The notes beneath the pieces were generated by a model, which searched no databases, was not told where the DNA came from, and saw only the letters and a list, made by a program, of their open reading frames with translations. A stretch of 64,000 nucleotides of DNA from Heloderma charlesbogerti (taxonomy: Eukaryota > Chordata > Lepidosauria > Squamata > Helodermatidae): assembly GCA_026122225.1 (NCBI GenBank), contig JANEZZ010001953.1:868001-932000 (forward strand), written 5' to 3'. This document shows, in pieces, positions 9,557 to 42,435 of this stretch. The number at the start of each line of letters is the position of its first letter. The stretch's first letter is position 1. Position numbers and translations under genes: made by a program.

Positions 9557-9635
9557 TATATAAGCCACTTGCCAACATTCCATGATAAGTCATATGAGAA
9601 AGATGCCAGTGGGTGGCAAGGATCTTTTAGGAATG

Positions 9636-9720
9636 GCGGAGAATTTCTCCCCGAAACTTCGGGGGGCCGAGCACCAACGTGTTCGGCCCCCCGAACAAGT
9701 TTCGGGGAGAAATTCTCCGC
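9636..9720. repeat. GC-rich hairpin in HP1
   Basis: GCGGAGAATTTCTCCCCGAA on the left pairs with its complement ending AATTCTCCGC on the right, with GTTCGG/CCGAAC-type pairing inside. The loop lies around 9,673-9,680. Confidence 0.9.
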
Positions 9721-9832
9721 ACCCCCCCACACCCCGCACCCCCCCCCGGGACGGGACTTACCGTTGGCGAATGTCCCTCCCGGCGGCGGGTCCGGCCGGC
9801 GGTTCGGCGGGTCTTCGTCCGGGACGGGAGCG

Positions 9833-9856
9833 GCAGCCGGTCTTTTGACCGGCTGC
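9833..9856. repeat. Perfect 10-bp stem, TTTT loop
   Basis: GCAGCCGGTC, TTTT, GACCGGCTGC: a perfect inverted repeat inside HP1. Confidence 0.95.
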
Positions 9857-9887
9857 TGCCGCCGCCATTCCAATAAAAGAAAAAAAA

Positions 9888-10365
9888 AATGCCCCCGTGA
9901 TAGGCTACGTGACGATTAACATAGCCTATCACGGCTAGATTTGCAAAGTCAGCCGTGATAGGCTACGTAAATCGTCACGTAGCCTATCACGGGTGACTTT
10001 AAAAAAAAAAAAGCGCGTATGGCTAATGGCGGCCCCCATAGGGAGCCGCCATTCCCGTTCCTTATTTGGTTGCTGTAGTCTACATAAAGATTACGTAGAC
10101 TACGGCGAAAATAAGGGCAACGCTATTTGCGTTGCCCTTATTTCCGCCGTAGTCTACGTAAAGATTTACGTAGACTACAGCGACCAAATAAGGAACGCGA
10201 ATGGCGGCTCCCTATGGGGGCCGCCATTTGCGTACGCGCTTTTTTTTTTTTTAAAGTCACCCGTGATAGGCTACGTGATGATTTTCGTAGCCTATCACGG
10301 CTGACTTTGCAGATCTAGCCATGATAGGCTATGTTAATCGTCACGTAGCCTATCAGGGGGGCGTT
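9888..10365. repeat. Large nested palindrome (about 239-bp arms)
   Basis: The arms 9,888-10,123 and 10,129-10,365 are reverse complements with scattered mismatches; the axis is near 10,126 (stem ATAAGGGCAACGC). Each arm is itself built of smaller palindromes: GTGATAGGCTACGT...ACGTAGCCTATCAC at 9,894-9,936, 9,951-9,993, 10,258-10,301 and 10,316-10,357; GGCGGC...GCCGCC at 10,025-10,053 and 10,200-10,228; and GTAGTCTAC...GTAGACTAC at 10,074-10,103 and 10,147-10,178. A12 and T12 tracts face each other across the axis. Confidence 0.95.
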
Positions 10366-10629
10366 TTTGTTTGTTTTTTTAACTTTTAATTTCGCGGCCG
10401 GGCGAGGCGAGGCGCCTCCTCCCCGGCCTGAATTTCGGCCGGGCGAGGCGGGAAGCCTCCCCCCCGGCCTGAACTTCCCGGGGGGAGCAGCGAAGCGCCT
10501 CCCCCCCACTGCGAAAAGCTGAGAGACCAGGTAAGTGACTTTCGTGCACCCCTAATCTTCATTTGGAGTGGAGGACAAAAAATGCCCTAGAAAAACCAAG
10601 ATCCATTCCGTGGACATGACCTAAAAAAA

Positions 10630-29629: not shown

Positions 29630-30826
29630 GCAGCTGGTCCCCATCCACATACCTACTGGCTTCTAAAGACCTGCAGGCTGCTGACTCAGATGAACTGCGT
29701 CCTAGAGTAATAAAGGAACTGGCAGAAGAACTCTCAGAACCACTGTCTATTCTCGTTGAGAAATCATGGAGGACGGGGGAAGTGCCAGAAGACTGGAAGA
29801 GGGCTAATGTTCTCCCTATCTTCAAAAAGGGCAAAAAGGAGGAACCTGGGAACTACAGACCAGTCAGTCTGACATCAATCCCTGGGACAAATCTGGAGCA
29901 AATTATAAAGCAATCAATCTGTAAACACCTTGAAAATTGGACTCAAAGAGAATTGGACTCAAAGAGTGCTTATCAATGGGATCTTCTCAAACTGGGGAAA
30001 GGTAACAAGCGGGGTCCTGCAGGGCTTAGTCCTGGGCCCCGTGCTCTTCAACATTTTTATTAATAACTTGGAGGAGGAGGTGCAGGGAATGCTTATCAAA
30101 CTTGCAGATGACACAAAATTGGGATAGCTAATACCTTGGAAGACAGAAACAAAATTCAAAGTGATCTTGATAAGCTGGAGTGCTGGGCAGAAAACAACAG
30201 AATGAAATTTAACAGGGATAAATGCCATGTTCCACACCTAGAAAAAAGAAACCAAATGCAGTTACAGGACGGGGGATACTTGGCTCAACAATACTGCAAG
30301 CGAGAAGTATACATAGCTTCCAAATCACGTGAAGTACTAGTTCCCCTCTACTCAGCACTGGTTAGGCCTCATCTTGAGTACGGTGTCCAGTTCTGGGTGC
30401 CACACTTTAAGAAGGACTGGAAACAAAGCCCTATGGGGAGAGACTGAAAGAACTGGGCCTATTTAGCCTTGAGAAGACTGAGGGGAGATAGGATAGCGCA
30501 CTTCAAGTACTTGAAAGGTTGTCACAGAGAGGAAGGCCAGGTTCTCTTCTCCATCATCCCAGAGTGCAGGACACAGAATAATGGGCTCAAGTGACAGGAA
30601 GCCAGATTCCGGCTGAACATCAGGAAAAACTTCCTGACTGTTAGAGCAATATGACAATGGAACCAATGACCTAGGGAGGGGGTGGGCTCTCCCACACTGG
30701 AGGCATTCAAGACGAGGCTGGACAGCCATCTGTCAGGGATGCTGTGAGTGTGACTTAGATTCCTGCACTGAGCAGGGGTGTGGACTTTTGGTCTTGTAGG
30801 CCCCTTCCAACCCTATTATTCTATGA
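29630..30826 (+). mobile_element. CR1 LINE, truncated and internally deleted
   Basis: ORF2 starts within LASKDLQAADSDELRPRVIK and continues with EPGNYRPVSLTSIPG to CKHLENW. It then jumps to TQRVLINGIFSNWG-type sequence, with about 90 residues missing, including the YLDFSK catalytic block. A 16-bp duplication of ATTGGACTCAAAGAG marks the junction. It resumes with VLGPVLFNIFINNLEEE and LADDTKLG and then breaks by frameshift. A further deletion after [20 protein letters not shown] fuses to the RLKELG region. The 3' end has CCCCTTCCAACCC and ATTCTATGATG. Inactive. Confidence 0.92.
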
Positions 30827-33303: not shown

Positions 33304-34150
33304 ATAGAATCAAAGAATCATAAAATAGTAGGGTGGGAAGGGGCCTACAGGACCATCGAGTCCAACCCCCCTGCTCAATGCAGGAATCCAAGTCAGAGCA
33401 TCCCTGACAGATGGCTGTCCAGCCTCGTCTTGAAGGCCTCCAGTGTGGGAGAGCCCACCACCTCCCTAGGTCATTGGTTCCATTGTTGTACTGCTCTAAC
33501 AGTCAGGAAGTTTTTCATGATGTTCAGCTGGAATCTGGCTTCCTGTCACTTGAACCCATTCTTCCGTGTCCTGCACCCTGGGATGATGGAGAAGAGATCC
33601 TGGCCTTCCTCTCTGTGACAACCTTTCAAGTACTTAAAGAGCGCTATCATGTCTCCCCTCAGTCCTCTCTTCTCCAGGCTAAACATGCCCAGTTCTTTCA
33701 GTCTCTCTTCATAGCGCTTTGTTTCCAGTCCCCTGATCATCTTTGTTGCCCTCCTCCGAACCTTCTTCAGTTTGTCTGCCTCCTTCTTAAAGTGTGGCAC
33801 CCAGAACTGGACACAGTACTCCGGATGAGGCCTAACCAGCACTGAGTAGAGGGGAACTAGTACTTCCCGGGATTTGGAAGCTATGCTTCTATTAACACAG
33901 CCCAAAATAGCATTTGCCTTTTTTTGCAGCCACATCACATTGTTGGCTCATATTCAGCTTGTGATCTACAACAATTCCGAGATCCATCTCGCTTGTAGTG
34001 TTGTTGAGCCAAGTATCCATCTTGTACCTGTGCATTTGGTTTCTTCTTCCTAGGTGTGGAACGTGGCATTTATACCTGTTAAATTCCTTTCTGTTGTTTT
34101 CTGCCCAGAGCTCCAGCCTATCAAGATCACTTTGGATTTTGTTCCTGTCC
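33304..34150 (-). mobile_element. CR1 LINE, 5'-truncated
   Basis: Frames 34,152-33,892 and 33,938-33,546 encode [36 protein letters not shown] and then [40 protein letters not shown]. Together they form the ORF2 region downstream of the RT catalytic box, split by one frameshift near 33,900. The 3' end has the canonical CR1 terminus at 33,304-33,370. The break is at 34,150. Confidence 0.92.
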
Positions 34151-41801: not shown

Positions 41802-41809
41802 CCAAAATC
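41802..41809. repeat. HP2 target duplication, left (CCAAAATC)
   Basis: Identical to 42,428-42,435. Confidence 0.95.
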
Positions 41810-42004
41810 TAGAGATGTTAGGGAATTCCACCATGGACTCCAATGAGGCCGGATTCTGTAGAATCCAGCCCCGCGGAGTCCGTGGCGGAACACAGCAATC
41901 CCACCCGCCACCCCACGAAATTTCCCCAGGACGGACCCTACCTTTTGTCGGCCGTCCGGTCTGTCCATTGCCCCAGTCTACAGCAGCCATTTGCCTCCCT
42001 ACTT

Positions 42005-42050
42005 TAGCCGTGATAGGCTACGTAAATATATACGTAGCCTATCACGGCTA
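42005..42050. repeat. Type A hairpin with perfect 20-bp arms
   Basis: TAGCCGTGATAGGCTACGTA, loop AATATA, then its exact reverse complement. Confidence 0.97.
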
Positions 42051-42052
42051 AC

Positions 42053-42095
42053 GCAGGGATGCAAATGGCGGCCACTACGCCATTTGCGTCCCTGC
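42053..42095. repeat. Type B hairpin
   Basis: GCAGGGATGCAAATGGCG pairs with CGCCATTTGCGTCCCTGC with one mismatch; loop GCCACTA. Confidence 0.97.
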
Positions 42096-42427
42096 ATTAG
42101 CCATGATAGGCTACGTATATATTTACATAGCCTATGACGAAAAGAGCAGGGACGCAAATGACATAGCGGACGCCATTTGCATCCCTGCTCTTTGCCGTGA
42201 TAGGCTACGTAAATATATACGTAGCCTATCATGGCTAATGCAGGGACGCAAATGGCCACAGCCCGGCAGGGGACGGAAGTCTGGCTGCGGGCGAGCCCAG
42301 CGGGCAGCTACACGGGCTCGCTGTGGAGCAGAGCTGGCCAGGGAGGATTCCGGGGGGAGGGACAGTTCGCCTCCCCCCCACAGCGGACGGCCCCACCAGA
42401 ACGGGGTGAGTGATTCGTACACCCCTA

Positions 42428-42435
42428 CCAAAATC
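42428..42435. repeat. HP2 target duplication, right (CCAAAATC)
   Basis: Identical to 41,802-41,809. Confidence 0.95.

What the first reader, a model, noticed from the sequence alone, without database searches (positions are those of the whole stretch)
9888..10365. Self-similar palindrome of about 480 bp made of smaller palindromes
Two arms of about 239 bp mirror each other around 10,126. Each arm consists of shorter perfect or near-perfect palindromes (GTGATAGGCTACGT type, GGCGGC type, GTAGTCTAC type) plus facing A12/T12 tracts. Ordinary MITEs have one inverted repeat; a nested design at three scales is unusual. The RNA or single strand could fold into a long rod with many side cruciforms.
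Basis: seen in the sequence. Interest (0 to 1): 0.75.

Follow-up and report, generated by a model that had tools for sequence, protein, structure and literature searches.

The report
Mobile DNA element of nested palindromes
The nested palindrome is the middle of a small, non-coding jumping gene present in thousands of copies, whose probable full-length relative is in the same genome; its two mirror halves change together between related families, which raises the question of what keeps them matched.

Summary
The palindrome is real and exceeds chance. It is the core of a 927-bp non-autonomous hAT-type transposon (window 9628-10554). Of 20 further copies, found by their core, 15 have exact 8-bp target duplications and 2 more differ by one base. 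The centre occurs 9,680 times exactly in this 2.3-Gb genome, a half-site of the small palindromes 79,607 times. A likely autonomous partner exists: 9.5-10 kb, exact 8-bp duplications in 2 of 3 copies with both ends seen, BED finger plus hAT dimerisation domain (a sister copy). Its 3' end carries the A-B-C array once; the small element carries it twice, mirrored. Inside the young family mismatches nearly ignore pairing: 24 of 212 variants mirrored, 15.9 expected. Between diverged families arms change together: 142 symmetric changes, about 21 expected, though several elements are close kin. So symmetry appears renewed in the multiplying lineage and decays in resident copies. I favour fold-back duplication plus arm-to-arm copying, the small palindromes serving as transposase-recognition DNA; this mechanism is inferred. 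New variant of a known kind (hAT MITE).

The parts
9628..10554 (+). whole non-autonomous hAT-type element (927 bp), TAGGAATGG...GTGCACCCCTA
   Evidence: boundaries shared with fetched copies; ends and 8-bp duplications in those copies; this copy itself has no clean duplication (GGATCTTT / ATCTTCAT)
9636..9720 (.). left-end palindrome, 24-nt perfect arms with an inner 17-nt hairpin
   Evidence: I10, I14; folds
9825..9864 (.). GC-rich hairpin of the left part
   Evidence: I17
9895..9934 (.). A1, 40-bp palindrome of the GTGATAGGCTACGT type
   Evidence: I18
9953..9992 (.). A2, inverse of A1; 9887-10000 is a second-level palindrome
   Evidence: I3
10001..10012 (.). A12 tract facing T13 at 10240-10252
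10025..10053 (.). B1, AATGGCGGC...GCCGCCATT palindrome
   Evidence: D5
10071..10107 (.). C1, GTAGTCTAC-type palindrome
10115..10137 (.). D, centre GGGCAACGC-TATTT-GCGTTGCCC
   Evidence: 4,884 + 4,796 exact copies in the genome, control 0
10145..10182 (.). C2
10200..10228 (.). B2
10261..10300 (.). A3
10319..10358 (.). A4, with A3 a second-level palindrome 10253-10366
   Evidence: I4
10059..10554 (+). part that matches the 3' end of the presumed autonomous element (82-87%, in one or two pieces)
10533..10541 (.). AAGTGACTT, 14-22 bp from the right tip; resembles a pair of hAT subterminal AAGT motifs, and overlaps a splice-donor-like GTAAGT
   Evidence: sequence; exact in 10 of 20 other copies, AAGTGGCTT in 7, AAGTGGGTT in 2; Hermes comparison from passages; inference
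41810..42427 (+). second element of the same clan, alternating A and B palindromes, exact 8-bp duplication CCAAAATC at 41802-41809 and 42428-42435

Best explanation
The 480-bp palindrome is the core of a non-autonomous hAT transposon, probably mobilised in trans by a 9.5-10 kb BED-finger hAT element of the same genome or a close relative of it. Shown: ends, target duplications, copy number, the shared 3' end, and an A-B-C array that is single in the large element and doubled, inverted, in the small one. Inferred: the small palindromes belong to the transposase-recognition region near the 3' end; the large palindrome arose by fold-back (hairpin-templated) duplication about the small palindrome D, doubling those sites; and in the lineage that keeps multiplying one arm is repeatedly copied onto the other, most likely through hairpin or cruciform DNA during replication or gap repair, so the arms evolve together, while each resident copy decays freely.
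For: 8-bp duplications exact in 15 of 20 copies, one mismatch in 2, none in 2, one copy lacks its left end; element 2 of the window has an exact one. Large element: left end in 4 of 4 copies sought, right end in 3 of 4, exact duplications in 2 of those 3 (ACTGAAAT, AAAAAAAG); the frame of a sister copy (L068, about 99% like the others) has zf-BED and Dimer_Tnp_hAT; 17 of the 150 scored transposase hits have an open frame of at least 870 aa. Its right end matches element positions 432-880 or 432-927 at 82-87% and, inverted, 249-567 or less at 87-89%. Family-1 consensus core: 460 of 475 pairs complementary, single copies 91-95%. Between families: 142 symmetric, 124 one-arm and 17 both-but-different changes in 8 elements, about 21 symmetric expected on a simple independence estimate. 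27 A modules: 10 of 16 pairs with changes on both sides, reached by 0 of 500 shuffles, further pair types by 1 of 500; 121 modules unfiltered, partner arms agree at 9.14 of 11 positions against 7.70 between modules, 0 of 5,000 permutations. Left ends of 5 diverged small elements align to this one at 70-80%; two of the large element score barely above shuffles.
Against: No step of fold-back or arm copying was observed. The partner link rests on the shared right end and array; the large element's left end shares little beyond the tip, so another hAT relative could be the parent. No binding data tie the palindromes to a transposase, and the outer arms vary between modules, which does not fit a strict sequence-specific site there. 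The AAGT-pair motif near the right tip is exact in only 10 of 20 copies. The 8 elements are not independent: in 5 of 8 an arm of another element is closer than the own partner arm (L055a/L055b and L045a/L045b by their sister copy, L061 by L055a), and L070 is on average a little closer to the family-1 consensus (92.0%) than arm to arm (91.2%); only L034 and L021b have the partner arm as the closest of all compared. So 142 counts changes, not separate events. Within the family the mirrored count (24) is a little above expectation (15.9).
Confidence: 0.58

Rival explanations
1. Recurrent formation: each small family was made anew by inverted duplication of the 3' end of its own autonomous lineage, so matching arms need no arm-to-arm copying.
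For: The autonomous 3' end holds one A-B arm; sub-family II (L070) has arms 91.2% alike and 91.6% like the autonomous arm.
Against: Five diverged small elements share a homologous left end (70-80%) that the two autonomous 5' ends tested lack, and the large mirror core is seen about the same kind of centre in the 8 elements compared; each new formation would have to regain the same left end. Autonomous elements with that left end may exist unseen.
Confidence: 0.25
2. Selection on structure: hairpin or cruciform form of the modules (in DNA or RNA) is needed for transposition or expression, and compensatory mutations are selected in source copies.
For: Covariation of the small modules; very stable predicted folds.
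Against: Near-perfect arms of 239 bp in the consensus go far beyond what a hairpin needs (inference). No RNA data were available.
Confidence: 0.15
3. Outward splice-donor-like motifs at both ends make the element a bidirectional promoter or exon donor, and the palindromes serve expression.
For: GGTAAGTG near the right end in 18 of 20 copies and ACTTACC in the left part in 16 of 20.
Against: The right-end motif may instead be a hAT subterminal repeat (compare); two motifs of 7-8 bases are weak evidence; no transcripts were examined.
Confidence: 0.05
4. Local accident of one locus.
For: None found.
Against: 40 places scored at 95% or more (the window's own included); 9,680 exact centres.
Confidence: 0.01

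Closest known systems
hAT MITEs (non-autonomous hAT elements)
   Same: 8-bp target duplication, short TAGGG/CCCTA-type ends, thousands of similar copies, a coding relative in the genome
   Different: much of the element is palindromes at several scales, and the core doubles the relative's 3' array
Hermes hAT element and its BED-domain binding sites (PMC10368747; 12 of 32 passages seen)
   Same: BED finger in the transposase of the large element; Hermes subterminal repeats include a quasi-palindromic pair near the left tip, bound cooperatively by two BED domains
   Different: in Hermes only one further pair is palindromic (passage); here 40-bp palindromes are the main feature and no binding is shown
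Angel elements and the internal inverted repeats of Tol2 in fish (recalled; the Tol2 paper is not held)
   Same: recalled as large, near-perfect internal palindromes linked to a hAT transposon
   Different: recalled as single-scale; no comparison was made here
Foldback elements (FB, Galileo; recalled)
   Same: inverted, internally repetitive arms
   Different: recalled as having long terminal inverted repeats; here the terminal repeats are a few bases and the palindrome is internal

Membership tests
hAT superfamily (as a non-autonomous member) | 8-bp target site duplication | tested here: met
   15 of 20 exact, 2 of 20 with one mismatch, 3 of 20 not; window copy itself not clean; element 2 exact
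hAT superfamily (as a non-autonomous member) | short terminal inverted repeats | tested here: met
   starts TAGGGATGG 11, TAGGGTTGG 7, TAGAGTTGG 1 of 19 with a left end; ends CACCCCTA 13, CACTCCTA 6, CACTCGTA 1 of 20
hAT superfamily (as a non-autonomous member) | coding partner with hAT transposase and shared ends | tested here: inconclusive
   relative with zf-BED + Dimer_Tnp_hAT and shared right end found; the left end shares little beyond the tip
hAT superfamily (as a non-autonomous member) | mobilised by that transposase | not testable with these tools
   needs an excision or integration assay
MITE | short, high copy, uniform length | tested here: met
   871-970 bp in 19 copies; 9,680 exact centres; absence of coding capacity was not tested by a gene search
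Foldback element | long terminal inverted repeats reaching the ends | tested here: not met
   mirror arms stop at about 9875 and 10378; between the outer parts only a 17-nt match is listed

The most novel reading that the evidence does not exclude
Palindromic arms in a hAT MITE lineage evolve in concert: one arm templates the other through hairpin DNA as part of the element's own replication or repair, so the element enlarges and renews its transposase-recognition array by successive fold-backs, which would explain how such MITEs outgrow their parent.
Probability: 0.33. Interest if true: 0.75.

Novelty: new variant of a known kind. Interest (0 to 1): 0.5.

Why it matters
How MITEs arise and why they outnumber their parents is an open question. 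Here a small element, a large relative that carries the array in single form, and diverged families lie in one genome, so the steps of palindrome growth and the rate of arm-to-arm copying could be measured directly. The clan is large: 79,607 exact 20-base half-sites.

Tried and rejected
TAGGGTTGG motifs about 700 bp behind transposases looked like left ends; they lie at the end of a repeat that I recognise as CR1 (recalled) and were rejected. Three-module arrays (A-L-A-L'-A) in L073 and L009 looked like proof of snap-back at a module, but deletion between A2 and A3 of the common element gives the same result, so they were not used. Whether transposase loci are enriched for the clan was not tested: 13 of 30 such loci hold A half-sites, without a matched control. 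Papers: ten searches, four of them empty; the others were judged by title and start of abstract, and none of those listed seemed to describe this element. Only PMC10368747 was opened, 12 of 32 passages. This is no proof that the element is undescribed; repeat databases were not available. The species was not established.

Full report
What is there. The window holds a near-perfect palindrome at 9888-10365 with its centre at 10126. It is layered: palindromes A1-A4, B1-B2, C1-C2 and D; A1-A2 and A3-A4 as second-level palindromes; and the whole. Order: A1 A2 A12 B1 C1 D C2 B2 T13 A3 A4. As RNA the core folds far below shuffles (0 of 100 as low); so does the whole element as single-stranded DNA (0 of 20).

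What it belongs to. A search of the window's own genome with the core scored 40 places (2,859 candidates at first look); apart from the window itself the better strand of each is 95-97% identical. The 20 best after the window were fetched. Similarity does not stop at the palindrome: in most of them it runs from about 9628 to about 10554. The copies start TAGGGATGG, TAGGGTTGG or TAGAGTTGG and end CACCCCTA, CACTCCTA or CACTCGTA, and are flanked by 8-bp duplications: exact in 15 of 20, one mismatch in 2 (L013, L014), none in L009 and L023, left end missing in L016. That is the signature of hAT transposons (established knowledge). The window's own copy has no clean duplication. A second, related element lies at 41810-42427 with the exact duplication CCAAAATC.

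How many. The 23-base centre D occurs 9,680 times exactly and the half-site CCGTGATAGGCTACGTAAAT 79,607 times, control 0 in both. Flanks of six of the 20 fetched loci, printed, hold other, more distant elements built of alternating A and B palindromes.

The relative that codes. Hits to the hAT dimerisation domain (150 scored of 871 candidates) include 17 with an open frame of at least 870 aa. Of the first 30 loci, 25 could be read through the domain without a stop and look like one kind (by eye). Five 8-kb stretches around such frames align at about 99% over 7.2-8.0 kb. The left end TAGGGATGTC was found in 4 of 4 copies sought and the right end GTCCACCCCTA in 3 of 4; two of the three with both ends have exact duplications (ACTGAAAT, 10,069 bp; AAAAAAAG, 9,465 bp; lengths from the places); the third, with another small element abutting its left end, does not. 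The frame scanned, that of the copy whose right end was not found (L068), has a BED finger and the hAT dimerisation domain. In the three copies with a right end, that end matches positions 432-880 or 432-927 of the small element, and the left mirror arm matches the same stretch inverted. So A, B and the outer linkers are single in the large element and mirrored in the small one; the small palindrome C-D-C is already present in the large one. The first 248 bases of the small element have no BLAST match in the pieces examined, which cover one whole large copy, C1330.

Do the arms stay matched? Within the young family, hardly: of 212 variants at paired sites in 21 copies, 24 are mirrored against 15.9 expected, and 141 are CpG transitions. 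Yet their consensus pairs at 460 of 475 positions, single copies at 91-95%. Between families, yes: in 8 diverged elements 142 changes are the same on both arms, about 21 expected if independent, against 124 on one arm only and 17 different on both. The limits: the elements include close pairs, and in 5 of 8 an arm of another element is closer than the partner arm; only L034 (93.1%) and L021b (88.7%) have the partner arm as the closest of all compared. The small A modules covary too (27 modules; 121 modules without a filter). In the listing GATAGGC stands with GATAGGC (73), CTTAGTC with CTTAGTC (8) and CGTAGTC with TGTAGTC (8); the one clearly mixed pair that I saw is TCTAGCC with AATTGCC.

How it most likely works. 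In Hermes, a hAT element, BED fingers bind subterminal AAGT motifs, and a quasi-palindromic pair near the left tip is bound cooperatively (passages). The window element has AAGTGACTT 14-22 bp from its right tip (exact in 10 of 20 other copies, one base different in 7), and the palindrome array lies further inside. I take the array to be recognition DNA (inference). The small element would have doubled it by fold-back about D. Because diverged small elements share a left end (70-80% in 5) while their arms change together, one continuing lineage with arm-to-arm copying explains more than repeated formation from autonomous elements, though the latter is not excluded.

Place among known things. 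It is filed as a hAT MITE: duplication, ends, length and copy number were tested and met; mobilisation was not testable; the partner link is good at the right end and weak at the left. It is not a foldback element, as the mirror arms do not reach the ends.

Noticed in passing
window 41810-42427: Second hAT-type element with alternating A and B palindromes and an exact 8-bp duplication.
   Followed up: partly
L067-L071 (8-kb stretches); C3039 and C838 copies: Large hAT elements about 99% alike, some with open frames of 879 aa, which suggests recent activity in this genome.
   Followed up: partly
L068:18-388: 97-bp tandem repeat in the 5' part of the large hAT element.
   Followed up: no
window 10531-10537 and 9756-9762: Splice-donor-like motifs pointing outward at both ends (GTAAGTG; ACTTACC on the + strand), kept in 18 and 16 of 20 copies; may instead be transposase motifs.
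   Followed up: partly
B modules such as window 10025-10053; A modules: AATGGCGGC resembles the YY1 site and TACGTAAAT a bZIP half-site (both recalled); untested.
   Followed up: no
window 30471-30747 and 33393-33669: 277-nt inverted repeat, 94% complementary, 2,645 nt apart.
   Followed up: no
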